From the NCBI GenBank assembly GCA_021779635.1, contig JAJYAH010000006.1, positions 1 to 31,395 on the forward strand: 31,395 bases of DNA, written 5' to 3'. The notes under the pieces are model-generated. The model was given only the letters and a program-made list of their open reading frames with translations. It did not search any database and was not told where the DNA came from. Of the stretch, positions 1 to 30,064 are shown one piece after another (the stretch's first letter is position 1; each line of letters starts with the position of its first letter). Both the position numbers and the translations under genes were made by a program. The DNA is from Pseudomonadota bacterium. Its GTDB lineage: Bacteria; Pseudomonadota; Alphaproteobacteria; Rhizobiales; Xanthobacteraceae.

Positions 1-1441
<1,441 letters not shown>

Positions 1442-1445
<4 letters not shown>

Positions 1446-2563
1446 GCGCGACCTCCCGACCGGTCCAGCAACACGCGGCCGCTGCCCTTCGACACGATCA
1501 CCAAGCCCTGCGCCGTGTCGCGCGCGGCGGTGATGCCGTGATATTTGCCGCCAACCCGGCTATGCAGGCTTTCCACCGCTTCGCCATCCTCATCGATGCG
1601 GACCAGCAGCCCGTACGAGCGCGGCGGCGCCCAGGGCTTCTCGATCCCGAGCGCCTTGATCGAGCCGAACTGCATCGGCTCGTGGCAATGACCGCTGGTG
1701 GCGAGCGCGGGCGAGATCCAGAGGTCCGGCGGGATGGTCTGCATCATCTCCTGGCGGAAATCGTCCTCGCGCAGCACGAACTCGACCAGATGGGTGCGCA
1801 CGGCGAACACGCTGAGCCAGAACCCGCCCCCCGCGCAATATCCGAGCCGCGCCGGATATCCCGGCATGTTGCCGACGACCGTCTGCGGCGTCGCGATGCC
1901 GCGGCCGGAGATGGCGGCGCGGCTGATCCGGTGGTTCCAGCTTTCGGTAAACCAGAGCGTCTTGCCGTCGGCCGCAATGGCAACCCCGCACGGATAATGC
2001 AGGTCGCGCAACAAGCTCTTCGCGCCGTCAAGCCCTGCGTCGCACGCGACCAGGCGGCCGAGGTGGTTCTGCTCCATGAGATCGCGAACCCAATCCTCGC
2101 GCTCGTGCCGACTGCTGCCGTCGGTCATGAAGATGCTGCCGTCGGCGGCAACGGTAACGCTGGTGAGGCATTGCAGCGGCTGGCTTTCGACCTGATTGAG
2201 CCAAGACTGCCGGCCACCGGCGTCGACCGCGGCCAAGCCGCGGCCGGCGACGCAGACCAGCAGGCGCCCATCGGGGTGAAAGGCCAGACCGCCTGCCGCA
2301 CCGTCGAACTCGGCGAAGACCGAGCGCGTCTCGTAGCCGACACCGGCCAGACGCAGTACCTGCTTGCCCGCGGAGACATAGATCGCGCCGTCGCCGCCTT
2401 CGGCGATATCGTCGGCGCCAGGAATCGGCGCTCCGATCGGGCTGAGCGCGTCCAACCGATCGTTCGGGGTATAGCCGCCGTCCATCGCCGGAATGGCATG
2501 CTGATCCCGGTTGGGAAACACGATCTGCTCGAGATCGCGCAGGAAATAGGTAAACACGCCCAT
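1442..2563 (-). CDS. Strictosidine synthase-like / SMP-30 family beta-propeller protein
   Basis: A 373-residue protein of the SMP-30/gluconolactonase/strictosidine-synthase-like superfamily, which are six-bladed beta-propellers that often hydrolyse lactones. Blade-type repeats are visible, such as AFHPDGRLLV (95-104) and VAADGSIFMTD (138-148). The blade holding the usual metal-site Asn reads YPCGVAIAADG (190-200), with Cys192 where the neighbouring fusion protein has Asn544. The later Asp position reads PGYPARLGY (234-242), without the Asp seen in the neighbour (Asp590). I infer that the canonical metal site is altered, so this may be a non-catalytic or differently acting paralogue. No signal peptide is evident, so it is probably cytoplasmic. 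It starts 3 bases after the fusion-gene stop and overlaps the ATPase gene by 4 bases. Family is clear; substrate and activity are unknown. Confidence 0.85.
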
Positions 2564-2566
2564 GAT

Positions 2567-4714
2567 CTACGCCCGGTCCCGTCGCTTGTTGCCCCAATAG
2601 GCCTCATATCCGGTCCAGGTCGGATCCCCTTTGTCGAGCTTGATACGACCGATCCGGTTGTTCTCGAGCCCGCCGAGATAGAGATAGCCCTTGTGCTCGC
2701 GCATCGAGGTCAAGGTCGAATGCGAGATACCGGTGGGATCCCAGTAGGATTCCAGCACCTCGCCGCTTTCGGTGAATTTCAGCACGCAGCCATGGTTCAG
2801 CCCCGGCGCCAGCCATTCGTCGGTCGGCACCTGCTTCACCATGCGCAGCCGGAAGCCCGGCTTCTTCATGGCGAGATCGAACACCGGCGTGCGGATGCCG
2901 ACCAGCGCCAGCCAGTAGTTGCCATCCGAGGCGCGGTTGATGTTGTCGCAATTGCCGGGCAGCTTATCGAGGATGACCTCCAGCTCGCCCTTGCGCGGCC
3001 CTTCCAGCCAATAGCGGAAGACCTGGCAGAGCGAGGTGCTGGCGATCAGCACCGACTTGCCGTCATGCGACACGCAGATGCCGTTCGGGAAATAGAAATG
3101 ATTGATCGCCGTCCAGGTCTTCTTGGTGGCGGGATCATAGACGACGAGACGGCCGTTCGGCCGCCCTTCCATGATGTCGAGGGAATTGGTCGTCATCTCG
3201 TAGCGCGTGGTGCAATCGCTGAAATAGATCTTGCCGTCCGGCGCTATGTCGAGATCGTCGGCCATGCGCAACCGGCTGTCGTCGTTCAGCTTGTACCAGG
3301 TACGGTTGGTCTCGTCGGTCACCTTGAAGAGTGTGCCGTCCGGCTTGATGCCGTAGACGCCCATGCCGGCAACGGCGACGATCAGGTTCTCGTCCTGGTC
3401 GAACTGCATGCCGAGCGGCCGCCCGCCGATATGGGCGAAGACCTCGCGCTGCTCGAAGTTCGGGCCGGAGAAACGGATGATATTGCCGTCGCGGGTGCTG
3501 CCATATAGCCGGTCATGCCGATCGAGAATAACGTCCTCGGGACCCTCCACCTGGTTGAGGCCGATGGCTTCAGCGTTGATCAGACGGTCGTTCTGGGCAA
3601 ACGGCGTCTTGCTGCCGCGCTCCAGCGACGGCGAGTCAACAAGGGGCACCGCCGCAGGGTTGACGTAAATCTTCTGGATTGCCTTGCCGCGGTTCTTGGC
3701 CCACTTGACGTCGATACCGACGGCCACAAGCAGGATGATGCCGATGATCCCCGAGGTGATGTAGCCCGGGATGCCCATGCGGACCAGGCCGTTGGTAAGC
3801 ACGAAGGTGATGATGCCGCCGAGCATGGCGCGCCAGACGGTGCCCTTGCCGCCGGCAAGCGAAACCCCGCCCAGGATGACGGCGGTCAGGGCCTGAAATT
3901 CCCAGCCGACCCCGGTCGTCGAATCCGTGCTGTTCTGGCGCGCGGCATAGAAGATGCCGCCGATCGCGCAGAGCATGCCCGACAGAGCATAGGTGAAGAG
4001 CAGCATGCGCTCGACCGGAATGCCGGCGTGGCGCGCCGCCTTGCGGCTGGCACCGATCGCGGTCAGGTGCCAGCCGTAGCGCGAGCGGCTAAGAAAGACG
4101 TGCCCGATGATCAGCACGACAATCAGCGTCGCGGCATTGATGGGAACGCCGAGCACATAGCCTTCGCCGAGGAAGTCCCAGGCATTGCTGTCGACCGAGT
4201 TGGTGGCGAAGACGGTGGCGAATTTCTCGTTCAGGATATTGACCGAGGCGCGCAGGATGATCAGCGTCACCAGGGTAGTGAGAAACGGACGCGCCTTGAG
4301 ATAGCCGATCAGCAGGCCGTTGATGCCGCCGATTGCAGCGCCGACCGCCATCGTGCCGAGGATGACCAGCGGAACCGGCAGCTCGGCGACGTTGAGCAGG
4401 AACAGCGCGGTGAAATTGCAGAGCGCGAAGATGGCGCCGACGCTGAGATCGATGCCGCCGGTGATCAGGCAGAACGCCATGCCGATGGCGACGAAGCCGA
4501 ACTCGGCATAGAGCCGCATCAGCGACAGAAAATTCTCCATTCCGGCATAGTTGGGAATCGTCGCGGAGAACCACAGCAGCAACGCGATCATCAAGGTGAA
4601 GGGGATCACCGGCTCGAACCACTGCTTCAGCAGCAGTTCCGAAAGCAGGAGCCGCGGCGACAGGCTGGCCTGCAACCGCGTGCCAAAGCCGGTGCCCATG
4701 GTACTGTCCGACAT
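2567..4714 (-). CDS. ABC transporter permease fused to strictosidine synthase-like/SMP-30 beta-propeller
   Basis: A 715-residue two-domain protein. Residues about 35-338 form an RbsC-type permease with many hydrophobic helices, the GGIDLSVG motif (86-93) and the family cytoplasmic loop ILGGVSLAGGKG (280-291). After a linker (about 339-380) comes a complete propeller of about 335 residues with ADDLDIAPDGKIYFSD (485-500), FPNGICVSHDG (542-552) and GNCDNINRASDG (587-598). These are strictosidine-synthase-like signatures. Candidate metal ligands are Glu390, Asn544 and Asp590. RbsC-type permeases end in the cytoplasm, so the propeller should sit at the inner mouth of the channel; this is inference. 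Stand-alone permeases are about 320-350 residues, so the length itself shows the fusion. ATG at 4714 is preferred over TTG at 4717 because AAGGAG lies 7 bases upstream. It pairs with the second permease of the operon. Confidence 0.9.
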   Translation of the reverse strand: MSDSTMGTGFGTRLQASLSPRLLLSELLLKQWFEPVIPFTLMIALLLWFSATIPNYAGMENFLSLMRLYAEFGFVAIGMAFCLITGGIDLSVGAIFALCNFTALFLLNVAELPVPLVILGTMAVGAAIGGINGLLIGYLKARPFLTTLVTLIILRASVNILNEKFATVFATNSVDSNAWDFLGEGYVLGVPINAATLIVVLIIGHVFLSRSRYGWHLTAIGASRKAARHAGIPVERMLLFTYALSGMLCAIGGIFYAARQNSTDSTTGVGWEFQALTAVILGGVSLAGGKGTVWRAMLGGIITFVLTNGLVRMGIPGYITSGIIGIILLVAVGIDVKWAKNRGKAIQKIYVNPAAVPLVDSPSLERGSKTPFAQNDRLINAEAIGLNQVEGPEDVILDRHDRLYGSTRDGNIIRFSGPNFEQREVFAHIGGRPLGMQFDQDENLIVAVAGMGVYGIKPDGTLFKVTDETNRTWYKLNDDSRLRMADDLDIAPDGKIYFSDCTTRYEMTTNSLDIMEGRPNGRLVVYDPATKKTWTAINHFYFPNGICVSHDGKSVLIASTSLCQVFRYWLEGPRKGELEVILDKLPGNCDNINRASDGNYWLALVGIRTPVFDLAMKKPGFRLRMVKQVPTDEWLAPGLNHGCVLKFTESGEVLESYWDPTGISHSTLTSMREHKGYLYLGGLENNRIGRIKLDKGDPTWTGYEAYWGNKRRDRA

Positions 4715-4758
4715 CAACGCACTCCTTCAGCGGGTAACTCCCGCCGCCCGGTGGTGGA

Positions 4759-4784
4759 CGACTCCCGCCGCGCGGCGGGAGTCG
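4759..4784 (-). repeat. Perfect 26-bp GC-rich palindrome downstream of binding-protein gene
   Basis: Two 13-base arms (CGACTCCCGCCGC and its exact complement) meet with no spacer. A partial extra copy of the arm (ACTCCCGCCG) lies at 4737-4746. The palindrome begins 12 bases after the binding-protein stop and ends 44 bases before the next start. It has no T-run on the transcribed side, so it is not a classic terminator. A role in protecting the upstream mRNA 3' end, so that the binding protein is made in excess over the membrane subunits, is the usual explanation for such sites and is inferred here. Confidence 0.75.
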
Positions 4785-4796
4785 CGATCAACCTTG

Positions 4797-5870
4797 TTAT
4801 TTCTTGTCCGGCGCCATCGGCACCGGCGAGGTTGCTGCCGTCTTCGGCAGGGCGAAGCAATTGCCGCCGCTGGCGTTGGTCTTGTCGAGCCAGATTGGCT
4901 GGGTGTACTGCTCAAGGTGCTTCTCACCCGGCTTCTGATTTTCTTCCAGCAAGGTGACCGCGGCGGCAACCAGATCGTGGCCCTGCTCGGTCGCCTTGTA
5001 GCTCAGGAACTTGTAGAAGTTCCCCTGGTTGACCTGGTCGCAATCGAGCTGCGAGCCCTCGCCCGAGGCATAAACCTTTACCTGATCGATCTTGCCCGCG
5101 TTGCGGATCGCCTGCGCGGCCCCGGATTCCATGATGCCCCAGAAGCCAATGCTGGCGCAGAGGTCGGGGTTCTGCTGGATCACGGTCGAGGTGATGTTGA
5201 GGGCGGCATTGGCATCCCAGTTCGCAGCCTGGTTGGAGACGACCTTGATCGATGGATCCTTCTTGAAGGTGTCCATGATGCCGCCGATCTGATCGACGCT
5301 GGCGGCGGCGGTGAGTTCACCCTGCACGATCGAGACCTTGCCCGACTTGCCGCTGCCGGCGCCACATTGCTTGACGACGTCCTCCGCCAGCAGACGGCCG
5401 ACCTCGTACCAGTCGCCGCCGACAAAGGCGTCAGACTTGTAGTTCGAGGACATGTTGACCTGGATGACATGGGTGCCTTGGGCCTCGGCCCGCTTCAATT
5501 CCTTCATCAGCAGCGTGACGCTCGGGTTCTGCACGATCAGCACATCCGGCTTGTCATTGACCAGGGCGGTCAGCGCCTGCTGCATCGCCGACGGATTGTT
5601 GTTAGGGTCGCGCACCACATACTTCATGCCGCGCCAGGCCGCTTCGGTGCGCACCACGCGCTCCCATTCGTCCTGCAATGGCACCCCGAGCGCGATCGGC
5701 AGGAAGGCGATGGTCTTGCCTTCAACAGCCTTATTGTAGTCAGCCCGAAGCTCATGCGCCGTCTTCGTGCCGCCTTCCTCTTGCGCCATCGCGATAAAGG
5801 GCGCCCCGGCCACCAGCGCAAAGCCTGCAAGTGTCAAGGCCGCCTTCGCCAGGAATGATTTCTGCAACAT
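4797..5870 (-). CDS. Sugar ABC transporter substrate-binding protein (RbsB-like)
   Basis: Periplasmic binding protein of 357 residues for the operon's importer. An N-terminal signal peptide is visible: Lys near the start, a hydrophobic core (about 9-27), and probable cleavage after AMA before QEEGG. The mature part has the periplasmic-binding-protein type 1 pattern, including KTIAFLPIALGVPLQDEW near residue 52, DVLIVQNPS near 110, and a GKVSIVQGELTAAA segment typical of the sugar-binding (Peripla_BP_4/RbsB) group. The start at 5870 is supported by GAGGGAGGA shortly upstream. It lies between two permease genes: 70 bases after the first, and followed by the 26-bp palindrome and then the permease-propeller fusion. 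The ligand cannot be told from sequence; the propeller partners make a sugar acid or lactone a reasonable guess. Confidence 0.9.
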   Translation of the reverse strand: MLQKSFLAKAALTLAGFALVAGAPFIAMAQEEGGTKTAHELRADYNKAVEGKTIAFLPIALGVPLQDEWERVVRTEAAWRGMKYVVRDPNNNPSAMQQALTALVNDKPDVLIVQNPSVTLLMKELKRAEAQGTHVIQVNMSSNYKSDAFVGGDWYEVGRLLAEDVVKQCGAGSGKSGKVSIVQGELTAAASVDQIGGIMDTFKKDPSIKVVSNQAANWDANAALNITSTVIQQNPDLCASIGFWGIMESGAAQAIRNAGKIDQVKVYASGEGSQLDCDQVNQGNFYKFLSYKATEQGHDLVAAAVTLLEENQKPGEKHLEQYTQPIWLDKTNASGGNCFALPKTAATSPVPMAPDKK

Positions 5871-5940: not shown

Positions 5941-6963
5941 TCAATCGCCCTGCCGCGCGGTCTCCTCGTCCCGCGGATGCAGCCAATTGTCCAGAATGAT
6001 GGCGGCAAGCAGAACCACGCCGCGGATGATGTTCTGCACTTCGCTGTTCACGTCCATGATGGTGAAGGCATTGAGCAAGGTACCGATCAGGGCGCAGCCG
6101 ACCACCACGCTGAACACGCCGCCGCGGCCGCCGATCAGGCTGATGCCTCCGAGCACGACCACGAGGATAACGTCGAAGACATAGGTACCTTGCACCACCG
6201 CCATCTGAATGCTGCCGGTGGTGCCGACCCAGATCAGCCCGGCGATCCAGGCCAGGAAGGCCACGATCATATATTCGAGGACGATCAGCGGGCGGAGCGC
6301 AATTCCGGTCAGTCTGGCTGCCTCCGGATTGTCGCCCTGGGAATAGATGAAGCGGCCGGTCGAGGTGCGCGACAGAAAGAGATGAACAACCAACGCGCAA
6401 AGCGCAAAGACGAAGATCGGCATCGGCACGCCAAAGAGATGCCCGGCGCCGAGAAAGAGCAGCGAATGCGCATTCGTCGGCGCATAGACCACCCAGACCG
6501 GCGCGAACCAGAATGCGCCTCCGTAGATCACCGAACCGGCAGCCAGCGTGACGAAGAGCGCAGGCGCCTCGACGAATGCCACCATAATGCCGTTTATGGC
6601 GCCGATCGACAACGCGACAACGAGCGCCAGGAACGACGCCCAGAAGATCGACATGCCCATCTGCATCTCGATCAGCCCGACCGCCCAGGAACCTGCCATG
6701 ATGGCGACCTCACTGAGGTCGATGCCGCGGCTGATCACGATCAGGCCCATGCCGAGACCGAGGATGCCGAGAATGGAGATGCTGCGCACCAGGTTCAGCA
6801 GATTGGCGACGCTCGAGAAGCCCGGCAGGGTCAGGCTGAACAGGACGAGCAGCGCGACCGTGATGAGCAACACGATCTGTTCCTGCGACGGTTTCTTCAG
6901 CAACTGTCCAAGCAGACTGCCGACGGCCCCACGCTCACCGTCAGCCGATGCATCCAATGCCAT
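5941..6963 (-). CDS. Sugar ABC transporter permease (RbsC-like)
   Basis: A 340-residue inner-membrane permease with eight or more hydrophobic helices. It has the family motif SRGIDLSEVAIMAGS near residue 82 and the cytoplasmic coupling loop VLGGISLIGGRGG near 270. Length is normal for RbsC-type subunits. It is the first gene of the transport operon, and together with the fused permease at 2567-4714 would form a heterodimeric channel rather than the homodimer of the ribose system. The ATG at 6963 follows GGGAGG at about 9 bases. The C-terminus is short and charged (HPRDEETARQGD), with no propeller, unlike its partner. Upstream lies a 629-base gap that should hold the operon promoter. Confidence 0.9.
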   Translation of the reverse strand: MALDASADGERGAVGSLLGQLLKKPSQEQIVLLITVALLVLFSLTLPGFSSVANLLNLVRSISILGILGLGMGLIVISRGIDLSEVAIMAGSWAVGLIEMQMGMSIFWASFLALVVALSIGAINGIMVAFVEAPALFVTLAAGSVIYGGAFWFAPVWVVYAPTNAHSLLFLGAGHLFGVPMPIFVFALCALVVHLFLSRTSTGRFIYSQGDNPEAARLTGIALRPLIVLEYMIVAFLAWIAGLIWVGTTGSIQMAVVQGTYVFDVILVVVLGGISLIGGRGGVFSVVVGCALIGTLLNAFTIMDVNSEVQNIIRGVVLLAAIILDNWLHPRDEETARQGD

Positions 6964-11325: not shown

Positions 11326-11823
11326 ATGAACCTCTCCATCAGCCTCACCGTTAACGGCGTGCGGCGGGACGTCGAACTCGAGGACCCCCGGGTCACGCTG
11401 CTCGACCTCCTGCGCGAGCGCCTGCATCTGACGGGAACCAAAAAGGGATGCGACCGCGGCCAATGCGGCGCGTGCACGGTCCTGGTCGAGGGCCGACGGA
11501 TCAATTCGTGCCTGGCTTTGGCGGTCAGCCATGACGGCGCCGACGTCCTGACCATCGAGGGTGTCGCCCGCGGGGACCAGCTTCACCCGCTGCAGGCGGC
11601 TTTCATAGCTCACGACGGCTTCCAATGCGGGTTCTGCACACCGGGCCAGATCATGAGCGCGCTTGGCCTGATTCGGGAAGCCCAAGCCGGTGATGATCCG
11701 GAACGGGTGCGCGAAGGCATGAGCGGAAACCTCTGCCGGTGCGGGGCCTATTCCGGGATCACGGACGCGGTGCTGGAAGTGCAGAAAAGCCTCGTCGAGG
11801 CCAACCAGAGGCGATCCGCATGA
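11326..11823 (+). CDS. Molybdenum hydroxylase small subunit, [2Fe-2S] protein (PaoA/CoxS-like)
   Basis: Electron-transfer subunit of 165 residues with both [2Fe-2S] clusters of the xanthine-oxidase family. Cys42, Cys47, Cys50 and Cys62 (GCDRGQCGAC...C) form the plant-ferredoxin-type site. Cys101, Cys104, Cys137 and Cys139 (CGFCTPG, CRCG) form the second. It passes electrons from the Mo site to FAD. The chain begins directly in the ferredoxin fold; an in-frame stop at 11311-11313 excludes an N-terminal extension, so there is no Tat signal. E. coli PaoA has one and is periplasmic, so this enzyme is probably cytoplasmic. GGAG lies 6 bases before the ATG. The stop overlaps the FAD-subunit start by 4 bases. 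Confidence 0.93.
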   Translation: MNLSISLTVNGVRRDVELEDPRVTLLDLLRERLHLTGTKKGCDRGQCGACTVLVEGRRINSCLALAVSHDGADVLTIEGVARGDQLHPLQAAFIAHDGFQCGFCTPGQIMSALGLIREAQAGDDPERVREGMSGNLCRCGAYSGITDAVLEVQKSLVEANQRRSA

Positions 11824-12878
11824 AGACCTTCGATTATATGAGACCCGCATCGATCGCCGAGGCGGTCGCGGCCGCGGCCGAACCGGGCGCCGCCTACCTT
11901 GCGGGTGGCACCAACCTGCTCGACCTGATGAAGGGTGGGATCACGCGTCCGAACCGTCTCGTCGACGTCTCGCGCCTGCCGGGACTGGATCGCATCGAAC
12001 GTCTACCCGATGGCAGCGTCCGCATCGGTGCGCTGGTTCGCAATGCCGATCTGGCGCACGATCCGGATTTCGCCCGCTCCTATCCCGCAATTGCCGAGTC
12101 GCTCCTGTCTGGCGCCTCCGCACAGCTTCGCAATGTCGCGACCGTCGGCGGCAATCTGTTGCAGCGGACGCGATGCGGATATTTCTATGATGTCGCGAGC
12201 GCCTGCAACAAGCGCGAACCGGGCGCGGGCTGCGATGCCCGTGACGGCGAGAACCGATTGCACGCGGTGCTGGGCTGGAGTGAAGCCTGCATCGCCACTC
12301 ACCCGTCGGATTTCTGTGTGCCGCTGGTCGCCCTCGATGCCGTCGCGGAGATTGAGGGCAGAACCGGCCGGCGCGAGATTGCAGTCGAAGACCTTCATCG
12401 TCTCCCCGGCGACACGCCTGCGCAAGAAAGCGCGCTCGATCGCGGCGATTTGATCGTAGCGCTGCGGCTGCCGGCCGAAGCCCGCGCATTCTCGGCGCAT
12501 CAACGCTATCTGAAGGTCCGCGAACGCACTTCCTATGCATTTGCCATCGTATCGGCCGCCGCGACGTTGCGGATCGAACAAGGCGCCATCCGGGATGCGC
12601 GGCTTGCGCTCGGCGGCGTTGCCGCCAAACCGTGGCGCGCCCGCGCCGCGGAGGAGATTTTGCAAGGCGCCCGTCCCGGACCCGACGCCTACCGCCGCGC
12701 GGCGGAAGTCGCGCTCGCTGGCGCGGCACCTTCCGGCGACAACCGGTTCAAGATCGAACTCGCGCAGCGAATCCTTGTTCGCGCCCTGACGCTCGCCGCG
12801 GCGGGAACGCCGGACCGCGTCGCGGCCCTTCCCGCCTCCCCTTTTTCCGCCCTCCCCGGAGCGCTCATCGATGCCTGA
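11820..12878 (+). CDS. Molybdenum hydroxylase FAD subunit with [4Fe-4S] insertion (PaoB/YagS-like)
   Basis: FAD-binding subunit of 352 residues. FAD-contact segments are AYLAGGTNLLDLMK (25-37) and ATVGGNLLQRTRC (107-119). Residues about 119-157 form a cysteine-bearing insertion: Cys119, Cys129, Cys138 and Cys157, in the pattern RTRCGYF...CNKREPGAGC...SEAC. This matches the segment that binds an extra [4Fe-4S] cluster in E. coli PaoB, and is absent from ordinary CoxM subunits. It points to the PaoABC aldehyde-oxidoreductase branch rather than CO dehydrogenase or xanthine dehydrogenase. The ATG at 11820 overlaps the previous stop (ATGA), and the 3' end overlaps the large-subunit gene by 8 bases. 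The C-terminal 30 residues are low-complexity Ala/Pro-rich. Confidence 0.9.
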   Translation: MKTFDYMRPASIAEAVAAAAEPGAAYLAGGTNLLDLMKGGITRPNRLVDVSRLPGLDRIERLPDGSVRIGALVRNADLAHDPDFARSYPAIAESLLSGASAQLRNVATVGGNLLQRTRCGYFYDVASACNKREPGAGCDARDGENRLHAVLGWSEACIATHPSDFCVPLVALDAVAEIEGRTGRREIAVEDLHRLPGDTPAQESALDRGDLIVALRLPAEARAFSAHQRYLKVRERTSYAFAIVSAAATLRIEQGAIRDARLALGGVAAKPWRARAAEEILQGARPGPDAYRRAAEVALAGAAPSGDNRFKIELAQRILVRALTLAAAGTPDRVAALPASPFSALPGALIDA

Positions 12879-15135
12879 GATCCATCTCACCCAAGCTCCT
12901 GCCCATCTGCGGCACGGCTCGAACATCGGCCAGCCACTGACCCGTCGCGACGGCGTCCTGAAGGTCAAAGGCGAGGCCCGCTACGCTGCGGACAACCACC
13001 CGGCCGGAATGCTGCACGCGGTTCTGGCGGTCAGCAGCATCGCGCGGGGCCGCGTGACCTTCCTTGACGTGCAAGCGGCCAAGCGCCACCCGGGCGTCGT
13101 CGAGGTCATGACTCCTGCCAACAAACCGCCGCTCGCGGAGGATCCGGACGCCAAGACGAATCCCTTCATGTTCCGGCTCGATCTCCTGCAGAACGACCGG
13201 GTGCGTTACGCGAACCAGTCGATTGCGGTGGTGATTGCCGAGACGCTCGAGGCTGCGACCGAAGGCGCCGCATTGCTGTCGCCACGATACGAAGTGTTGC
13301 CTGCCCGCGTGGGTCTCGATGCCGGAGAAAGCTTCGTGCCGCCCGCCATCGGCGTCGGCAATCCCTCCGAAATGCGGCGTGGCGATGTGGAGGCGGGTCT
13401 GGCGATGGCGTCGAAGCGCATCGACGCGACCTACGAGACCCCCACCCAGTACCACAATGCGATGGAACCGCACGCCATCGTGGCGGCGTGGGACGGCGAT
13501 GCGCTGTCTATCGATACGCCGACCCAGGGTCTCGCGATGGCCCAGGGGCGGATCGCCGGACTGTTCGGCATCTCACCGGAAAAGATCCATATTCGTAGCC
13601 CCTTCCTGGGTGGCGGCTTCGGATCGAAAGGTCTGATCTCCGGGCCACAGATCCTCGGCATCATGGCGGCTCGGCTGGTCGGACGGCCGGTCAAGCTCGT
13701 GCTGCGCCGCGAACACATGTATGGCCCCGTCGGCCATCGTGCGCCCACCCGCCAGACGCTTCGCATTGGCGCTGACGGCGACGGCTTGCTGACCGCGATC
13801 GATCATCACGCCAAGACGGTGTCGAGCAGCTTCGACGACTTCTTCGAACCGGCCGCCGACGCCTCGCATACGCTTTACGCGAGCCCCATCGCCACGTCGC
13901 ACGAGGCGGTGCGAGTTGACACCGGCACACCGTTGTTCATGCGAGCTCCGGGCGAGGCAACAGGCTCGATTGCGCTGGAAAGCGCGATCGACGAAGCGGC
14001 ATGGGCCTGCGGGATGGATCCGCTGGCATTCCGCCTCAAGAACTATGCCGAGGTCGAGCCGATTTCCGGCAAACCGTTCTCCTCGAAAGCCTTGCGTGAA
14101 TGCTACGCGCAGGGAGCCGAGCGCTTTGGCTGGTCAAGACGCCCGCTTGCCCCGCGACAATTGCGCGACGAGGCTGGCTTGCTGGTCGGTTGGGGAGTAG
14201 GCACTGCGACATTTCCGGCGCTGATGTTCCAGGCCGAGGCGCGCGCGGTGTTGCGAAGCGACGGCTCCGGCCTGATGGAAACCGGCGCCCACGACATGGG
14301 CCAGGGCGCCTGGACCGCGCTCGCCCAGATTGCATCAGACGGGCTCGGCCTCGAACTGGACCAAATGGAGTTCAAGGCAGGCACGTCCGACCTGCCGGAC
14401 GCGGGCATCGCTGGCGGCTCGGCTCATACCGCGACCGCCGGCATGGCTATCCACCACGCGGGGGCTGCCGTGATCGCCAAGCTTGCCGATCTGGCCACCA
14501 CCGATCAACGCTCGCCCCTGTTCGGCGCGGGCAACGCCGGCGTGGTAGCGCGCGACGGTCGTCTGTTCCGTCGCGACGATGAAATGAGAAGCGAGAGTTA
14601 TGCCGACATCCTCGGCCGCGCCGGCCTGAAGGAGATCGAAGCCCGCGGCAAGGGTGCCGCGGACCCCGCGTCGCAATCGACCTACGCCATGCATGCCCAT
14701 GGGGCGGTGTTCGCCGAGGTCAAGGTCGATCCCGATCTCGGTCAAATCCGCGTCACCCGCATGGTCGGCGCTTTCGCGGCGGGCCGGATCATCAATCCTC
14801 ACCTGGTGCGCAGTCAGATCTTCGGCGGCATGATTTGGGGCATGTCATTCGCGCTACATGAGCATGCCGTCATGGACCGGCGCTCCGGCCGCACACTCAA
14901 CCCCAACCTCGCAGAGTACCACATCCCGGTGAACGCCGACGTGCCGTCCCTGGAGACCCTCATGGTTGACGAGCACGATCCTCACGTGAACGCGCTCGGC
15001 ATCAAGGGGGTCGGCGAAATCGGCATCACAGGCTCGGCCGGCGCCGTTGCCAACGCGGTCTGGCATGCGACCGGAATCCGGGTGCGTCGTTTCCCGATCA
15101 GGATCGAGGATCTCGTGACGCCGGATTCAAACTGA
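12871..15135 (+). CDS. Molybdenum hydroxylase large subunit, molybdopterin-binding (PaoC-like aldehyde oxidoreductase)
   Basis: Catalytic subunit of 754 residues that would oxidise an aldehyde or N-heterocycle with water as oxygen donor. It has the N-terminal aldehyde-oxidase a/b hammerhead region (VKGEARYAADN near 32), the molybdopterin-contact motif GGGFGSKG (about 248-255), and the C-terminal KGVGEIGITGSAGA, in which Glu716 corresponds to the catalytic base of xanthine oxidase. Length fits PaoC (about 730). No signal peptide is present. No MoCo chaperone of the XdhC/PaoD type lies nearby, so maturation would depend on one elsewhere. It is the third gene of the operon. A broad aromatic-aldehyde substrate is suggested by the PaoB-type partner but not proven. 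Confidence 0.92.
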   Translation: MPEIHLTQAPAHLRHGSNIGQPLTRRDGVLKVKGEARYAADNHPAGMLHAVLAVSSIARGRVTFLDVQAAKRHPGVVEVMTPANKPPLAEDPDAKTNPFMFRLDLLQNDRVRYANQSIAVVIAETLEAATEGAALLSPRYEVLPARVGLDAGESFVPPAIGVGNPSEMRRGDVEAGLAMASKRIDATYETPTQYHNAMEPHAIVAAWDGDALSIDTPTQGLAMAQGRIAGLFGISPEKIHIRSPFLGGGFGSKGLISGPQILGIMAARLVGRPVKLVLRREHMYGPVGHRAPTRQTLRIGADGDGLLTAIDHHAKTVSSSFDDFFEPAADASHTLYASPIATSHEAVRVDTGTPLFMRAPGEATGSIALESAIDEAAWACGMDPLAFRLKNYAEVEPISGKPFSSKALRECYAQGAERFGWSRRPLAPRQLRDEAGLLVGWGVGTATFPALMFQAEARAVLRSDGSGLMETGAHDMGQGAWTALAQIASDGLGLELDQMEFKAGTSDLPDAGIAGGSAHTATAGMAIHHAGAAVIAKLADLATTDQRSPLFGAGNAGVVARDGRLFRRDDEMRSESYADILGRAGLKEIEARGKGAADPASQSTYAMHAHGAVFAEVKVDPDLGQIRVTRMVGAFAAGRIINPHLVRSQIFGGMIWGMSFALHEHAVMDRRSGRTLNPNLAEYHIPVNADVPSLETLMVDEHDPHVNALGIKGVGEIGITGSAGAVANAVWHATGIRVRRFPIRIEDLVTPDSN

Positions 15136-15425: not shown

Positions 15426-18400
15426 ATGAGTCTTTCAAGCCCGTTTATCCGTCGGCCTGTCGCCACCACGCTGCTGACGTTCGGGTTGGTCGCCGCCGGC
15501 ATCATCGCTTTTTTCAAGCTCCCAGTCTCGCCGCTGCCCGATGTCGATATCCCGACCATTTCAGTGCAGGCGACACTACCGGGTGCGAGCCCCGGAGACG
15601 TCGCGACTACGGTCGCAAGTCCGCTGGAACGCCACCTCAGCCAGATCGCCGATGTCACCGAGATGACATCGGCGAGCGCACTCGGCTCGACGCGTATCAA
15701 TCTGCAGTTTGGCATCAATCGCAACATCAACGGTGCTGCACGTGACGTCCAGGCGGCGATCAACGCAGCGCGTGCGGATCTGCCGACCGCGCTGCGGAGC
15801 AATCCCAGCTATCGCAAGTTCAACCCCGCCTCAGCGCCAATCCTCATCTATACGTTGACGTCGGACACGCTGACCCCCGCCGAACTGTATGACGCGGCTT
15901 CGACCGTGCTGGCCCAGAAGTTGTCACAGGTCGAAGGCGTCGGTGAAGTCAGCGTCAGCGGCGGATCGCTACCCGCCGTGCGCGTCGAGCTCGTTCCGCA
16001 ATCTCTCTACAAATACGGCATCGGCCTGGAAGACGTCCGCGCTGAGCTTGGCAGCGCGAACGCCCACAGTCCGAAAGGCGGCATCGACGTCAAAGACCAG
16101 CGCTACCAGATCTATTCAAACGATCAGGCCACCAAGGCGGCGGACTACAAATCGCTGGTGGTCGCCTATCGCAATGGCGCGGCGGTCCGCCTGACGGACG
16201 TCGGCGAGGTGCTCGATTCCGTAGAGAACCTCCGCAATCTGGGCCTTTCCAACGGCAAGCTGGCGGTCATGATGATCCTATACCGGCAGCCTGGCGCCAA
16301 CATCATCGGGATGGTCGACCGCGTGAAGGCGCTGATGCCGCAACTGCAGGCATCGGTCTCACCCGCGATCGATGTCCGTCTCGCGGTCGACCGCTCGATC
16401 ACAATCCGGGCCTCGCTGCGGGACGTCGAGATCACGCTCATCATTGCCGTGATTCTGGTGATCCTCGTGGTGTTCGCATTCCTGCGCAGCGCACGGGCGA
16501 CGCTGGTGCCGGTAGTGGCTGTCGCGGTATCCCTGGTCGCGACCTTTGCGGTCATGTATCTGCTCGGATACAGCCTCAACATCTTCTCGCTGATGGCGCT
16601 CACGGTCGCGACCGGATTCGTGGTCGACGACGCCATTGTCGTGCTGGAAAACATTTCCCGTCACCTCGATGCAGGCAAGCCGCCGCTGGAGGCCGCGTTG
16701 CTGGGGTCGCGCGAGGTCGGCTTCACGGTGCTGTCGATGAGCGTGTCACTGATCGCGGTGTTTGTCCCGATCCTGTTGATGGGCGGCCTGGTCGGCAAGC
16801 TGTTCCGCGAATTCGCCATGACCATCACTATTGCCATCGTGATCTCGCTGGTGGTTTCGCTGACGACGACACCGATGATGTGCGCCGCGCTGCTGCGCGC
16901 GGAACGCGATCAGCCGCACGGACGGATCTATCGTGCCTGCGAGCGTGTCTTCGAGGCGCTGCTGAATTTCTACCGACGGACGCTTGCCGTCGCACTGCGT
17001 CATCCTCGCTCGGTGATGCTGATTCTCGCCGCAACCCTCGGCCTGAATTTCCATCTTTACAGCGTCGTTCCAAAAGGCTTCGTCCCGCAACAGGATACAG
17101 GATTGCTGATCGGATCTATTCAGGCCGATCAAAGCATCTCGTTTCAACTGATGCAGCAGAAGCTCAGACAGTTCGTCGACATCGTCAAGGCCAATCCGGC
17201 AGTCGACATCGCCGTCGGCTTTACCGGCGGTGGCGGACCGGGTCCGGGCGGAGGCTCAACCAACTCCGGCACCGTATTCGTCTCCCTGAAGCCGCTTCGT
17301 GACCGCGAGCTCTCAGCCGAGCAGTTGATCGGTGTGCTGCGGAATGAACTAGCCGCGGTGCCGGGCGCCACGCTGTTCCTGCAGGCGGTGGGGGATCTCG
17401 GCGCCGGCGGACGCTCCGGTAACGCGCAGTATCAATACACCCTGCAGGGATCGACGTTCGAAGAACTGAACGAATGGACGCCGAAGATCGTCGCGGCGCT
17501 TCAAACCGTGCCGGCCCTCGTCGATATCAGCAGCGACCAGCTGAACAACGGCCTCCAGGCCAACGTGACCATCGACCGCGATGCCGCCTCACGACTAGGA
17601 ATCATGGTCAGTCAAATCGATAACACGCTGTACGATGCCTATGGGCAGCGGCAGGTCTCGACCATCTACGTGGCGCGCAACCAGTACCACGTGATCATGG
17701 AGGTCGCGCAGGCGTACCTGCAGAACCCGCAGACACTGAAGGACGTTTATGTCAGCACCTCGGGCGGACCCGCCAGCGGCTCGCAAACGACCAACGCCGT
17801 GGCCGGGACTATCGTGTCATCGACGCAGGCCGCGTCTGTCAATTCGGTGGCGGCCAGCGCGGTCCGGAATCTTGCGACCAACTCGATCGGCGCCACCGGT
17901 AACGGTACATCGTCGACCGGGACGGCGGTCAGCACCAGCCAGGAGACGATGATTCCGCTGTCGAGCGTCGCTCGATTCGTACAAGGCCAGACACCGCTTG
18001 TCGTCAGCCATCAGGGAGTTCTGGTCGCAAACACGATCTCGTTCAATCTCGCTCCCGGCGTTTCGCTGAGCAAGGCGATTGCGACGATCGAGGAGACGAT
18101 GAACCGGATCGGAGTTCCGGCGACAATCCGCGGCTCCTTCCAGGGCGCCGCCAAGATCTTCCTGGAATCGCTTAGCAGTGAGCCGTTTCTCGTTCTCGCG
18201 GCGTTCGCGACGATCTACATCTCACTCGGGATGCTCTATGAAAGTTTCGTCCACCCGCTGACGATCCTGTCCACACTGCCCTCGGCCGGCGTCGGCGCGG
18301 TTCTGGCGCTGATGCTGTCTCATACCCAATTCGACATCATTGCGATGATCGGAGTGATCCTGCTGATCGGCATCGTGAAAAAGAACGCTATCATGATGAT

Positions 18401-18695
18401 CGATTTCGCGCTCGACGCCGAGCGCGTGCTTGGCCTGCCACCGGCGGAGGCGATCTACCAGGCCTGCCTGCTGCGCTTCCGGCCGATCATGATGACCACC
18501 ATGGCGTCGCTGCTCGGCGCTGTCCCGCTGATCGTCGGTATGGGTGAAGGCAGCGAGTTCCGCCAACCGCTCGGCATCACGATTATCGGGGGACTGGTCC
18601 TGAGCCAGATCCTGACCCTCTACACCACGCCCGTCGTCTATCTGTATCTCGATCGCTCCCGGCATTGGAGCAGGCGAATGCGGCGGAGCAGCTGA
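15426..18695 (+). CDS. RND (HAE-1) multidrug efflux transporter permease subunit
   Basis: Inner-membrane proton-driven pump of 1089 residues, close in plan to AcrB/MdtC. The N-terminus SSPFIRRPVATTLL and PVSPLPDVDIPTI is the family signature. The proton-relay pair Asp401-Asp402 in FVVDDAIVVLEN (TM4) and the TM10 lysine in GIVKKNAIMMIDFAL are both present, so the pump looks intact. An extra Ser/Thr/Ala/Gly-rich segment (about 777-840) is inserted in the second periplasmic domain before MIPLSSVARF; AcrB has nothing of that length there. No membrane fusion protein or outer-membrane factor gene is adjacent, so it must use partners encoded elsewhere. Placement between an aldehyde oxidoreductase and a Rieske oxygenase suggests export of a toxic aromatic, but this is only context. 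Confidence 0.95.
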   Translation: MSLSSPFIRRPVATTLLTFGLVAAGIIAFFKLPVSPLPDVDIPTISVQATLPGASPGDVATTVASPLERHLSQIADVTEMTSASALGSTRINLQFGINRNINGAARDVQAAINAARADLPTALRSNPSYRKFNPASAPILIYTLTSDTLTPAELYDAASTVLAQKLSQVEGVGEVSVSGGSLPAVRVELVPQSLYKYGIGLEDVRAELGSANAHSPKGGIDVKDQRYQIYSNDQATKAADYKSLVVAYRNGAAVRLTDVGEVLDSVENLRNLGLSNGKLAVMMILYRQPGANIIGMVDRVKALMPQLQASVSPAIDVRLAVDRSITIRASLRDVEITLIIAVILVILVVFAFLRSARATLVPVVAVAVSLVATFAVMYLLGYSLNIFSLMALTVATGFVVDDAIVVLENISRHLDAGKPPLEAALLGSREVGFTVLSMSVSLIAVFVPILLMGGLVGKLFREFAMTITIAIVISLVVSLTTTPMMCAALLRAERDQPHGRIYRACERVFEALLNFYRRTLAVALRHPRSVMLILAATLGLNFHLYSVVPKGFVPQQDTGLLIGSIQADQSISFQLMQQKLRQFVDIVKANPAVDIAVGFTGGGGPGPGGGSTNSGTVFVSLKPLRDRELSAEQLIGVLRNELAAVPGATLFLQAVGDLGAGGRSGNAQYQYTLQGSTFEELNEWTPKIVAALQTVPALVDISSDQLNNGLQANVTIDRDAASRLGIMVSQIDNTLYDAYGQRQVSTIYVARNQYHVIMEVAQAYLQNPQTLKDVYVSTSGGPASGSQTTNAVAGTIVSSTQAASVNSVAASAVRNLATNSIGATGNGTSSTGTAVSTSQETMIPLSSVARFVQGQTPLVVSHQGVLVANTISFNLAPGVSLSKAIATIEETMNRIGVPATIRGSFQGAAKIFLESLSSEPFLVLAAFATIYISLGMLYESFVHPLTILSTLPSAGVGAVLALMLSHTQFDIIAMIGVILLIGIVKKNAIMMIDFALDAERVLGLPPAEAIYQACLLRFRPIMMTTMASLLGAVPLIVGMGEGSEFRQPLGITIIGGLVLSQILTLYTTPVVYLYLDRSRHWSRRMRRSS

Positions 18696-18986
18696 TCGCC
18701 GCGCCGTCCATCGATGCGCCCAACGCGACGCCCCGATCGAGGGCAGCTACGCCGCCCTGCCGAAACGAAATGCCCTCGTATCCGCTTGCCGTCAACGCAT
18801 TGCATTTTTCCCGACAGGTCACAGCGCCGGCGGCATTGGCCAGAAGCGTCCGCTTCGATTGGATGAAAACGTCACGCTTGCAAAGACCTAACGCTCGTTA
18901 GAAACTGTTCCGGGCGACCCCGTCCGTGGATCGACCATGGAGGGCCGAAATAATCTAAAATAAGACAAATAAGAGGGAGGATGCCA
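18696..18986. other. Intergenic region upstream of the Rieske oxygenase
   Basis: No gene is supported. The region holds the candidate operator described separately (18888-18901) and an AT-rich stretch (about 18945-18972) just before the ribosome binding site AGAGGGAGG (18972-18980). GGGAGG directly abuts an ATG at 18981 and lies 6 bases from a second ATG at 18987, which decides the start chosen for the oxygenase. No terminator for the RND gene was recognised. Confidence 0.4.
18878..18906 (+). promoter_or_regulatory. Candidate TetR-type operator in a weak promoter before the Rieske oxygenase
   Basis: CTAACG-CT-CGTTAG (18888-18901) is a perfect 6-base inverted repeat with a two-base centre. 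It matches the AACG-N2-CGTT layout seen in many TetR operators. TTGCAA (18878-18883) lies upstream and GAAACT (18901-18906) follows at 17 bases; each matches only part of the sigma-70 consensus, so the promoter call is weak. The repeat is 86 bases before the oxygenase start. Its sequence differs from the repeat before the hydroxylase operon, so a different regulator is implied. Confidence 0.45.
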
Positions 18987-20171
18987 ATGGATCGCGCCAC
19001 CGAGATCGCATTGTGCAAGAAGCTCTTGCGCTATGTCGACACACGGACCACGGCGCTCGCCGACGCGCCGTGGGAAAACAGTGTCGACGCCTTTGCTTCG
19101 CCTGAGCGTCTCGCCCGCGAACAGCAGACCCTGTTTCGGGACTATCCGCTTTTGATGGGTATCTCGTCGGAATGGGCCGAGCCCGGTCAGTACCGTACCG
19201 ACGATCTTGCCGGCGTTCCGATTCTGATGGTGCGCGGAAGCGATGGTGTCCTGCGCGCTTTTCTTAATGTCTGCCGCCACCGCGGCGCCAAGATCGCGGA
19301 TGGTTGCGGTGCAACGAAATTGTTTCGTTGTCCTTATCACGCCTGGACCTACGATCTTGCAGGGCAGTTAAAAGCCATCCCCGCCGAGGCCGCGTTCGCC
19401 AATGTCAGGGAAAGCCGCCCCTCACTGGCGGCTCTGCCGCTGTGCGAAAAATACGGATTGGTCTGGGTCGTGCCGCGACCGGCGACGGACGGGGCAACCA
19501 CGTTCGATATCGATCCATGGCTTGGCGGCCTCGGGCCGGAACTCGCCTCTTATCGTATCGACACCTATCATCACTACGACCGGCGGCTGGTGCCGGAGAA
19601 GGCAAACTGGAAGATTCTCGTCGATACCTTTCTGGAAGGCTATCACATAGGTTTCCTGCACAAGGATTCACTGGGCTCGATTCTTTACGGCAACATCAGC
19701 GACTTTGAAGCCTTTGGAAACAACGCGCGCGTGATCTTGCCACGCAAAAAACTGGCGCGCCTGCGTGAACAGCCGGAAGCGGAATGGAGCCTGATGCGCA
19801 ATACCGCCATCGTCTATCTGCTGTTTCCCAACACGCTGTTCGTGCCGCAAGGCGATCACATCGAGATTCAGCGGATCTTTCCGGTCGACGGACGCATCGA
19901 TCGCGCGGTCATGGAAACCGGATTTTATGTGCCGAAGAAGCCCACTACCGAGGAAGAGAAGCTGCATTGGGAGAAGAATTTCGACCTGCTGGTCAAGGTC
20001 GTTTCCAACGAGGATTTCCCAACCGGGCGCAGCATGCAAATCGGATTTGGCTCCGGCGCGCAAACCCACGTCGTGTACGGTCAGGTTGAGCCCGGAATGA
20101 TTCACTACCACCAGGGCTTGCGCCGCGCGCTAAGCCTGCCGGTCGACGCCGACGCGCTGAAGGATCGTTAG
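18987..20171 (+). CDS. Rieske non-heme iron oxygenase, alpha subunit
   Basis: Ring-hydroxylating or demethylating oxygenase component of about 394 residues, cytosolic. The Rieske [2Fe-2S] site reads CRHRGAKIADG...CPYHAW, with Cys96, His98, Cys115 and His118. The mononuclear-iron region reads ANWKILVDTFLEGYHIGFLH, with His220 and His225 as ligands; the third ligand, an Asp, should lie about 110-130 residues later but was not pinned down. Length fits the alpha subunit of aromatic dioxygenases and of carnitine/choline-type monooxygenases. No beta subunit, ferredoxin or reductase gene is adjacent, so it may be an alpha-only oxygenase using reductases encoded elsewhere. ATG 18987 is preferred to 18981 on ribosome-binding-site spacing. 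Substrate unknown; neighbours suggest an aromatic or carboxylic acid. Confidence 0.92.
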   Translation: MDRATEIALCKKLLRYVDTRTTALADAPWENSVDAFASPERLAREQQTLFRDYPLLMGISSEWAEPGQYRTDDLAGVPILMVRGSDGVLRAFLNVCRHRGAKIADGCGATKLFRCPYHAWTYDLAGQLKAIPAEAAFANVRESRPSLAALPLCEKYGLVWVVPRPATDGATTFDIDPWLGGLGPELASYRIDTYHHYDRRLVPEKANWKILVDTFLEGYHIGFLHKDSLGSILYGNISDFEAFGNNARVILPRKKLARLREQPEAEWSLMRNTAIVYLLFPNTLFVPQGDHIEIQRIFPVDGRIDRAVMETGFYVPKKPTTEEEKLHWEKNFDLLVKVVSNEDFPTGRSMQIGFGSGAQTHVVYGQVEPGMIHYHQGLRRALSLPVDADALKDR

Positions 20172-20411: not shown

Positions 20412-20492
20412 ATGTCAACGAGACAACCGGTTCTGCCCGCGTCAGGGCACGAACATTTTTTCGTTCGACCATTCCACGGTCAGGTCGCATGA
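20412..20492 (+). CDS. Small ORF (26 codons) translationally coupled to livG
   Basis: ATG at 20412 follows AAGGGGAAG at about 6 bases, the best ribosome binding site in this area. The frame runs 26 codons (beginning MSTRQPVLPASG, ending FHGQVA) and its TGA overlaps the livG ATG by four bases (ATGA). livG has no clear ribosome binding site of its own, so ribosomes ending here could restart on livG. The peptide has no membrane segment or recognised family and has two His-rich spots (GHEHFF, PFHG). It may serve only to deliver ribosomes, or act as a leader peptide. It could also be a chance frame; ribosome profiling or conservation of the frame in relatives would decide. Confidence 0.45.
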   Translation: MSTRQPVLPASGHEHFFVRPFHGQVA

Positions 20493-21292
20493 GTGCGCTG
20501 GAGACGCGCACGGATTCGGCCGACGGGCCGGTTCAGCTGTCCGTTGCGGGCGTCGCCAAGCGGTTCGGCGGCGTCATCGCCGTTCAGGACATTTCACTCG
20601 ATCTGCGCAAAGGACAAATTCTTTCGATCATCGGTCCGAACGGCGCCGGCAAGACGTCGCTGCTCAACATGATCTCGGGGTTCTACAAACCCGATAGCGG
20701 GCGCATTCTGCTCGAAGGCCGGGACATCACGCGCCGGAAGCCGAGCGAGGTCGCGGCGATGGGAATCGCCCGGACGTTCCAGAATATCGCGCTGTTCAGC
20801 GGGCTCACGGTTCTCGACAATCTCATGCTTGGCCGTCACGTCCGGATGCGCGCCGGTGTGCTCGGCAGCGCGGTCTACTGGGGGATGGCCCAGCGCGAGG
20901 AAATAGCCAACCGCGAAGTGTGCGAGGAACTGATCGACTTCCTCAAGCTGCAGGACCTCCGCAAGCAGCAAACCGGCGCGCTCGCCTACGGCCTGCGCAA
21001 GCGGGTCGAACTCGGACGGGCGCTGGCGCTCGAGCCGAGCGTGATCCTTCTCGACGAGCCGATGGCCGGCATGAACCAGGAGGAGAAGGAGGACATGGCG
21101 CGCTACATTCTCGACGTCAATCAGGAGCGCGGCGTTTCCGTTGTGCTGATCGAACACGACATGGGCGTCGTCATGGACATCTCCGACCGCGTCGTCGTGC
21201 TCGATCGCGGCCGCAAGATCGCGGACGGCACGCCATCCGCTGTGCAACGCGAGCCTGTGGTGATCGAGGCCTATCTCGGAACCAAATCATGA
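20489..21292 (+). CDS. livG: Branched-chain amino acid-type ABC transporter ATP-binding protein LivG
   Basis: Cytoplasmic ATPase of 267 residues for the Liv-type importer. Walker A GPNGAGKT (49-56), the LivG-specific GIARTFQNIALF, Walker B VILLDEPMAGMN, and the switch histidine in IEHDMGVVMDISDRV are all present. The ABC signature is the LivG variant, reading LAYGLRKRVELGRAL instead of LSGGQ. An N-terminal extension of about 15 polar residues precedes the domain. The start overlaps the small upstream ORF and the stop overlaps the CoA ligase start, each by four bases (ATGA), so all three are probably translated in series. Confidence 0.93.
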   Translation: MSALETRTDSADGPVQLSVAGVAKRFGGVIAVQDISLDLRKGQILSIIGPNGAGKTSLLNMISGFYKPDSGRILLEGRDITRRKPSEVAAMGIARTFQNIALFSGLTVLDNLMLGRHVRMRAGVLGSAVYWGMAQREEIANREVCEELIDFLKLQDLRKQQTGALAYGLRKRVELGRALALEPSVILLDEPMAGMNQEEKEDMARYILDVNQERGVSVVLIEHDMGVVMDISDRVVVLDRGRKIADGTPSAVQREPVVIEAYLGTKS

Positions 21293-23241: not shown

Positions 23242-23244
23242 ACG

Positions 23245-24141: not shown

Positions 24142-24154
24142 GAACGAAACCACG

Positions 24155-25222: not shown

Positions 25223-25251
25223 GCACGGGCTCGCAACACGGGAGGAAGCAA

Positions 25252-26496: not shown

Positions 26497-26503
26497 CAAA
26501 ACG

Positions 26504-26533
26504 GCGGCGGGCGCTCGCAAGGCCGCCCGCCGC
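26504..26533 (+). repeat. GC-rich hairpin after livK
   Basis: Perfect 10-base arms GCGGCGGGCG (26504-26513) and CGCCCGCCGC (26524-26533) enclose a 10-base loop, starting 7 bases after the livK stop. Only three T residues follow, so it could be a leaky terminator or, more likely, a 3'-end stabiliser that lets the binding protein be made in excess before the downstream livF gene. The same layout occurs after the sugar binding-protein gene at 4759-4784, with an unrelated sequence. Confidence 0.7.
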
Positions 26534-26603
26534 TTTGACTTGGTCGGCACGTTCCGGAAAGCCGTGTCCGCTCCCCAGGATCATTCGCAAGGCGCAATCA
26601 GAC

Positions 26604-27398
<795 letters not shown>

Positions 27399-30058: not shown

Positions 30059-30064
30059 GCGGCA

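What the first reader, a model, noticed from the sequence alone, without database searches (positions are those of the whole stretch)
2567..4714. Membrane permease fused to a strictosidine-synthase/SMP-30-like beta-propeller
A complete RbsC-type permease (about residues 35-338) continues in frame into a complete propeller (about 380-715) that keeps candidate metal ligands Glu390, Asn544 and Asp590. RbsC-type permeases end in the cytoplasm, so the propeller should sit at the channel exit, where it could hydrolyse or isomerise a sugar lactone as it arrives. Coupling of transport and chemistry in one polypeptide is unusual for ABC importers. The reading frame is uninterrupted over 2.1 kb and the linker has no start signal, so it is not a simple assembly error.
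Basis: partly seen in the sequence, partly recalled or inferred. Interest (0 to 1): 0.72.

Follow-up and report, generated by a model that had tools for sequence, protein, structure and literature searches.

The report
Importer permease with built-in propeller enzyme
One half of a bacterial nutrient importer is fused to a ring-shaped protein that looks like an enzyme, and it travels with a second ring that has lost its metal-binding residues, so these bacteria may process a compound as they take it in.

Summary
The fusion is real. It lies on the minus strand (4714 to 2567, 715 aa): an RbsC-type permease followed in frame by a strictosidine-synthase-like (SSL) six-bladed propeller. It is an old, conserved family, not an artefact: 120 of 120 listed homologues have both parts, and 60 of 61 places found with the neighbouring gene as probe have a long fused-type frame upstream; the 61st is cut by a contig end. 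No split version was seen. It is one of five genes in a nearly fixed order: permease 2, binding protein, FUSION, second propeller, double ATPase. The second propeller has lost most of the site, with Arg (66 of 68) replacing one ligand. The C-terminus is predicted cytoplasmic. Best reading: a cytosolic hydrolase paired with a pseudoenzyme at the exit of an ABC importer. Architecture is shown; catalysis, metal, substrate and coupling are inferred. Neighbouring genes (CoA ligases, CoA transferases, dehydrogenases) do not favour a sugar. The closest solved homologue, rice TGW6, bound no calcium, which is a warning.

The parts
2567..4714 (-). Fused gene: RbsC-type permease + SSL/SMP-30 propeller, 715 aa from ATG 4714 (a TTG codon directly precedes it)
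3665..4609 (-). Permease part (residues 36-350); last helix 317-350 runs on as a stalk in the model
   Evidence: Pfam BPD_transp_2, model m64e7339b8d5b
2639..3604 (-). Propeller part (residues about 371-692)
3533..3538 (-). E393-D394, candidate metal ligands (pattern of PON1 Glu53-Asp54)
   Evidence: 67 of 67 and 67 of 67 conserved
3254..3259 (-). D486-D487 (pattern of PON1 Asn168-Asp169)
   Evidence: D486: D 49, N 18 of 67; D487: 67 of 67
3083..3085 (-). N544 (pattern of PON1 Asn224)
   Evidence: 67 of 67; profile match to PON1 at a constant offset (my reading)
2942..2947 (-). D590-N591 (pattern of PON1 Asp269-Asn270)
   Evidence: 67 of 67 and 67 of 67
1442..2563 (-). Second, separate propeller (373 aa), no evident signal peptide, metal site dismantled; R239 where the fusion has N591
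3..1445 (-). Double ATPase (RbsA/AraG-like), overlapping the second propeller by 4 bases; runs off the window
4797..5870 (-). Periplasmic binding protein (Peripla_BP_4), with signal-peptide-like start
5941..6963 (-). Second permease (RbsC type), no propeller

Best explanation
This is a five-gene CUT2 (RbsC/RbsA-type) ABC importer. One of its two permeases carries, through a short stalk of fixed length, a cytosolic six-bladed SSL-family propeller that keeps a paraoxonase-like metal site and is most likely a hydrolase. A second, free propeller of the same family, with its metal site removed, most likely docks beside it (for instance under the other permease) as a pseudoenzyme or ligand-sensing partner. 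The binding protein delivers a compound, the ATPase drives it through the permease pair, and the fused propeller hydrolyses a lactone, ester or conjugate bond as it emerges, trapping the product for CoA-thioester or dehydrogenase pathways encoded nearby. Shown: fusion, operon, conserved site, loss of the site in the partner. Supported by prediction: cytosolic side, folds. Inferred: catalysis, docking, substrate class, coupling.
For: Architecture in 120 of 120 listed homologues and 67 of 68 stretches, the other cut by a contig end. Of 61 second-propeller places, 60 have a frame of at least 700 aa with a propeller match just upstream and the 61st has the fusion's last 116 residues at a contig end; none of the 60 frames lacked the partner. 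Residues at seven PON1 ligand positions kept (PON1 ligands from passages of PMC7916636). Standalone SSL propellers keep most of the same set. The partner lost it: the N591 equivalent is Arg in 66 of 68, the D590 equivalent Ala/Ser/Gly in 68 of 68. Model folds match TGW6, strictosidine synthase, DFPase and PON1. Lys/Arg count in predicted inner loops 11 (N-terminus not counted), in outer loops 0, fitting C-terminus inside. Spacer length fixed at 52-55. Neighbouring enzymes are CoA ligases, SDRs, CoA transferases and aldehyde dehydrogenases.
Against: No activity, metal or complex was measured. TGW6, the closest solved homologue, has the comparable Glu/Asn/Asn/Asn set and showed no calcium in the crystal (PMC10958001 section 5). 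Neighbourhoods vary and name no single substrate; the commonest neighbour cluster (a LysR regulator) is in 13 of 45 loci only. Placement of permease relative to propeller in the model is not constrained (pTM 0.67). The hydropathy ranges of the partner propeller's start (0.37-1.14) and of the binding protein's start (0.95-1.95) overlap, so 'no signal peptide' rests partly on reading by eye. An SSL fold can be non-hydrolytic (strictosidine synthase).
Confidence: 0.45

Rival explanations
1. The fused propeller is not an enzyme but a cytosolic ligand-sensing or gating domain that regulates transport (as regulatory domains do in some other ABC importers, recalled); the two propellers form a regulatory pair.
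For: The second propeller has clearly lost its site yet keeps other polar positions almost without change (R256 66, E261 68, E266 68, R336 67, H342 67 of 68). TGW6 shows that an SSL site of this type can be metal-free.
Against: The fused copy keeps the seven ligand-type positions across sequences as little as 37% identical; a purely regulatory domain would not need them.
Confidence: 0.27
2. The propeller is a hydrolase, but fusion only fixes its amount and location; there is no mechanical or kinetic coupling to transport.
For: Same family occurs free-standing with most of the same ligands (20 standalone proteins), so the chemistry needs no transporter.
Against: Fusion not undone in any of the 61 places and spacer length fixed to 52-55 residues, suggesting geometry matters.
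Confidence: 0.2
3. The propeller lies in the periplasm and processes the substrate before uptake.
For: PON1-type relatives are secreted or lumenal and calcium is more available outside the cytoplasm (recalled).
Against: Lys/Arg sit in loops 139-142, 211-233, 282-292 and 338-351 and in none of the predicted outer loops, fitting C-terminus inside; the partner propeller has no evident signal peptide in the 7 proteins examined.
Confidence: 0.05
4. Assembly or annotation artefact joining two genes.
For: None found.
Against: Same join in 120 of 120 listed proteins from several sources, in six complete plasmids and in 67 of 68 stretches.
Confidence: 0.01

Closest known systems
CUT2 / RbsABC-type ABC sugar importers (BPD_transp_2 permease, double ATPase, Peripla_BP_4 binding protein)
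   Same: All transporter parts are of this type; the ATPase has two Walker A/B blocks with one unusual motif each (GENGAGKST/LGTAK and GLIGSGRTE/LSGGN), as recalled for RbsA.
   Different: One permease carries a C-terminal propeller, a second free propeller accompanies it, and no sugar-specific NCBIfam model reaches its cut-off.
Strictosidine-synthase-like (SSL) propellers, e.g. rice TGW6 (8KG3), an IAA-glucose hydrolase
   Different: Fused to a permease; has Asp394 and Asp487, and mostly Asp486, where the TGW6 chain has Ser, Gly and Asn (alignment); TGW6 showed no calcium.
Paraoxonase-1 and DFPase (six-bladed calcium hydrolases)
   Different: Only about 17-18% identity over the fold match; bacterial, predicted cytosolic, transporter-fused.
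RPA3624 beta-propeller lactonase (8DJF) and XC5397 gluconolactonase (3DR2)
   Different: Single-domain structures; sequence identity 16-17%.

Membership tests
CUT2 (RbsC-type) ABC importer | BPD_transp_2 permease(s), tandem-NBD ATPase and Peripla_BP_4-type binding protein in one operon | tested here: met
CUT2 (RbsC-type) ABC importer | Transports a pentose or hexose | tested here: inconclusive
   Sugar-specific NCBIfam models that match are all far below cut-off; recurrent neighbours scanned are not sugar kinases or isomerases; no transport data
Strictosidine-synthase-like propeller family | SSL_N and Str_synth domains and six-bladed propeller fold | tested here: met
Strictosidine synthase (the enzyme) | Pictet-Spengler condensation of tryptamine and secologanin | not testable with these tools
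   No biochemical data; bacterial context makes it unlikely (inference)
Calcium-dependent propeller hydrolases (PON1/DFPase/SMP-30) | Conserved metal ligand set in the central channel | tested here: met
   By sequence: E393, D394, D487, N544, D590, N591 67 of 67 each; D486 Asp 49/Asn 18 of 67; PON1 ligands from passages of PMC7916636. Geometry was not measured
Calcium-dependent propeller hydrolases (PON1/DFPase/SMP-30) | Bound metal and hydrolase activity | not testable with these tools
   TGW6 with a similar set had no calcium
Calcium-dependent propeller hydrolases, second propeller 1442-2563 | Conserved metal ligand set | tested here: not met
   D590 equivalent Ala/Ser/Gly 68 of 68, N591 equivalent Arg 66 of 68, N544 equivalent Asn in only 8 of 68, D487 equivalent Ala in 62 of 68; the E393-equivalent acid is kept in 60 of 68

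The most novel reading that the evidence does not exclude
An ABC importer with a catalytic/pseudo-catalytic propeller pair built into its cytosolic mouth: the fused propeller hydrolyses the cargo as it exits, and the metal-free twin (an arginine in place of a metal ligand) completes the site or reports occupancy to the ATPase, so that chemistry and transport are coupled, an ABC counterpart of group translocation.
Probability: 0.3. Interest if true: 0.85.

Novelty: new variant of a known kind. Interest (0 to 1): 0.62.

Why it matters
If the fused propeller acts on the cargo, this is a widespread way to make uptake through an ABC importer effectively irreversible by chemistry, normally associated with sugar phosphotransferase systems. 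It would give a testable model for coupling catalysis to an ABC cycle, explain what many 'SMP-30/gluconolactonase' and 'strictosidine synthase' annotations in Proteobacteria belong to, and offer a natural active/inactive propeller pair for studying how a metal site is lost.

Tried and rejected
Assembly artefact: rejected. Split genes in relatives: searched with the second propeller as probe, none found. Other fusions: two long frames with weaker propeller hits, L193 (664 aa) and L194 (528 aa), gave no match to the fused permease; read as standalone propellers with long open frames. In-operon duplication of the two permeases: not supported; in an 88-row quick tree fused permeases (24) and second permeases (24) are each one group and the 40 generic permeases need two changes, so the two are not neighbours. 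Recent duplication of the two propellers: not supported; fused, second and standalone propellers form three groups, with a long branch (1.31) to the second (quick, unrooted). Substrate from neighbours: no single pathway; three of the clusters whose representatives I printed (numbers 6, 15, 17, in 7, 3 and 3 loci) looked like spurious frames and were dropped by eye; 10 of the 15 printed were scanned with Pfam. Literature: no paper describing this fusion was seen in searches (no papers; one paper each; PMC6759348 checked by passages; PMC11925935 not opened; 506 papers, 25 listed, none on the fusion by title or abstract start). Most subscription papers are not held, so this is weak evidence of absence. 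PMC3223731 was searched for passages and had nothing on this system; passages of PMC3654945 gave 10 as the commonest predicted TM number of CUT2 permeases. Other phyla: no second-propeller-strength match in 246 and 199 genomes of the phyla of a Saccharopolyspora and a Paenibacillus genome (two weak matches) nor in 7 scattered genomes; the tool warned that a blank without a positive control shows nothing.

Full report
Observation. The 2567-4714 frame is on the minus strand; the plus-strand reading has an internal stop. From ATG 4714 it gives 715 aa: an RbsC-type permease and, in frame, a strictosidine-synthase-like (SSL) propeller (Pfam BPD_transp_2, SSL_N, SGL, Str_synth). The best NCBIfam match of the permease is the ribose permease model, at 173 bits against a cut-off of 398, so it is an RbsC relative but not shown to carry ribose. 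The host organism was not identified (no genome held).

Is it general? A protein search gave 3327 matches among the 7999 candidates scored; the 120 listed all carry both domains at 77-96% identity over at least 93% of the query (the other 3207 were not seen). tblastn on plasmids found 15 records with a place covering at least 80% of it at 41-50% identity, in Rhizobium, Shinella, Sulfitobacter, Celeribacter, Salipiger, Paracoccus, a Paracoccaceae bacterium, Paraburkholderia and Pantoea (three places join two pieces). Six of the 15 were opened and show one annotated gene of 685-708 aa each.

The operon. I read 68 stretches, the window included: six from plasmids, 21 from named genomes (L009-L029, the fused-type ones among the 80 loci) and 40 of the 61 second-propeller places (fetched). 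They are not all independent: 49 of 67 differ by more than 10%, and L028 and L189 are the same contig. In 67 of 68 the fused frame is present; the other (L027) starts inside the propeller at a contig end. All five genes - permease 2, binding protein, FUSION, second propeller, double ATPase - were labelled, on one strand, in 63 of 68. The five others are L014, L016, L022 and L027, cut by a contig end, and L190, whose second propeller scores under the first label threshold but passes a lower one. In L005 and L012 the listing shows one gene out of turn because its open frame starts far upstream (the annotated genes of L005 are in the usual order). L153, L160, L162 and L179 have extra transporter labels nearby. 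In the window the ATPase start overlaps the second propeller's stop by 4 bases.

A test of the join from the other side. Searching whole genomes with a profile of the second propeller alone (A3) gave 61 strong places (E below 1e-50) in 45 genomes. Of these, 51 are in the phylum and order samples (two of them in the centre genome G001) and 10 only in genomes that I had chosen because they hold a fusion. In 60 a frame of at least 700 aa with a weaker propeller match lies within 600 bases upstream on the same strand; in the 61st (G559) the contig ends 382 bases upstream, and that piece encodes the last 116 residues of the fused propeller. None of the 60 long frames was without its partner. The permease part was read directly in the 40 places fetched. 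I left 31 matches with frames of 336-664 aa and E of 2e-30 or weaker out of this tally; of these, 18 were used as standalone propellers and a few long or odd ones were checked for a permease. In one search alone 2 of 18 partners were not listed because only 5 candidates per genome were scored; one search shows both. Strong matches were in 11 of 398 and 35 of 297 genomes of the phylum and order samples around a Bradyrhizobium genome, and in 0 of 246 and 0 of 199 genomes of the phyla of a Saccharopolyspora and a Paenibacillus genome (no positive control there). Four genomes have three copies.

The metal site. Residue numbers count from ATG 4714; scripts counted the preceding TTG as 1. In 67 fused sequences (lowest pair 37% identical) E393, D394, D487, N544, D590 and N591 are each 67 of 67, and D486 is Asp in 49 and Asn in 18. 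Passages of PMC7916636 list the PON1 ligands as Glu53, Asn168, Asn224, Asp269, Asn270 (catalytic) and Asp54, Asp169 (structural), which is the same run of doublets. [quoted passage not shown] both placements are my reading of the printed output. Twenty standalone SSL propellers have Glu393 in 20, Asp394 in 16, Asp/Asn486 in 20, Asp487 in 18, Asn544 in 20, Asp590 in 20 and Asn591 in 17 of 20.

Caution on the metal. Section 5 of the TGW6 paper (PMC10958001) reports no calcium in the crystal, although TGW6 is an IAA-glucose hydrolase (title and start of abstract). The fused propeller has Asp where TGW6 has Asn-167 (in 49 of 67), and adds Asp394 and Asp487, but occupancy remains unproven.

The second propeller. 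Profile-profile comparison aligns its residues 29-370 with nearly the whole fused propeller (probability 99.95, 313 columns). In 68 sequences the position of E393 is acidic in 60, but the others are dismantled: D486 becomes Thr in 54; D487 becomes Ala in 62; N544 is Asn in only 8; D590 becomes Ala/Ser/Gly in 68; N591 becomes Arg in 66. It keeps its own nearly invariant set (E261, E266, R336, H342 and others). I read it as a pseudoenzyme with an arginine near the former metal position; this is inference.

Origin. In a quick 94-row tree the fused propellers (21), second propellers (53) and standalone propellers (20) are each one side of a branch (SH-aLRT 95, 100, 99), which fits a single fusion event. 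Fused permeases (24) and second permeases (24) are likewise each one group among 40 others. Both trees are unrooted and of the quick kind.

What it might handle. Around 45 loci (of 49 non-redundant ones; four dropped out of the script) the recurrent neighbours were, by Pfam on one representative per cluster, LysR 13, AMP-binding ligase 10, SDR 9, an ABC ATPase 7, CoA-transferase III 7, aldehyde dehydrogenase 7, GntR 5, enoyl-CoA hydratase 4, MmgE/PrpD 4, zinc alcohol dehydrogenase 3. The window itself carries an SDR, a molybdenum-hydroxylase trio, a Rieske oxygenase, a CoA ligase and two CoA transferases. One operon (Pantoea) does lie beside sugar-type genes such as a dihydroxyacetone kinase and a sugar-binding regulator. 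Overall this points to acids, alcohols, esters or lactones rather than ordinary sugars, and to cargo that differs between operons; weak inference.

Verdict. The architecture and the strict pairing of two propellers, one with and one without the site, are solid; the mechanism is a well-founded hypothesis. No description of this system was seen in the paper searches made. The fused gene is in public databases under generic names such as 'ABC transporter permease' or 'SMP-30/gluconolactonase/LRE family protein'.

Noticed in passing
window 4718-4797: Strong RNA hairpin between the binding-protein gene and the fusion (12-bp GC stem; -42.1 kcal/mol, z -2.95 against shuffles); may set a higher level of binding protein than of the downstream genes.
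   Followed up: partly
window 20489-27398: A second, LIV-type ABC system (two BPD_transp_2 permeases, two ATPases, Peripla_BP_6) with an AMP-binding CoA ligase (773-aa frame) set inside it.
   Followed up: no
window 28925-31300: Two adjacent CoA-transferase family III genes, fitting CoA-thioester catabolism in this region.
   Followed up: no
window 11326-15135: Three-subunit molybdenum hydroxylase ([2Fe-2S], FAD, molybdopterin subunits), nearest to PaoC-type aldehyde oxidoreductase but below its cut-off.
   Followed up: no
window 15426-20171: MdtC-like RND efflux permease followed by a Rieske ring-hydroxylating oxygenase alpha subunit.
   Followed up: no
8KG3 (TGW6) sequence, alignment: The residue before Asn-272 of TGW6 is Asp, so TGW6 also has the Asp-Asn pair of PON1 (269-270); section 5 of the TGW6 paper counts only Glu-59 as acidic in the site.
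   Followed up: partly
genomes G062, G198, G479, G601: Three second-propeller places in one genome, each with the fused frame beside it, suggesting the module has been copied for different cargo.
   Followed up: partly
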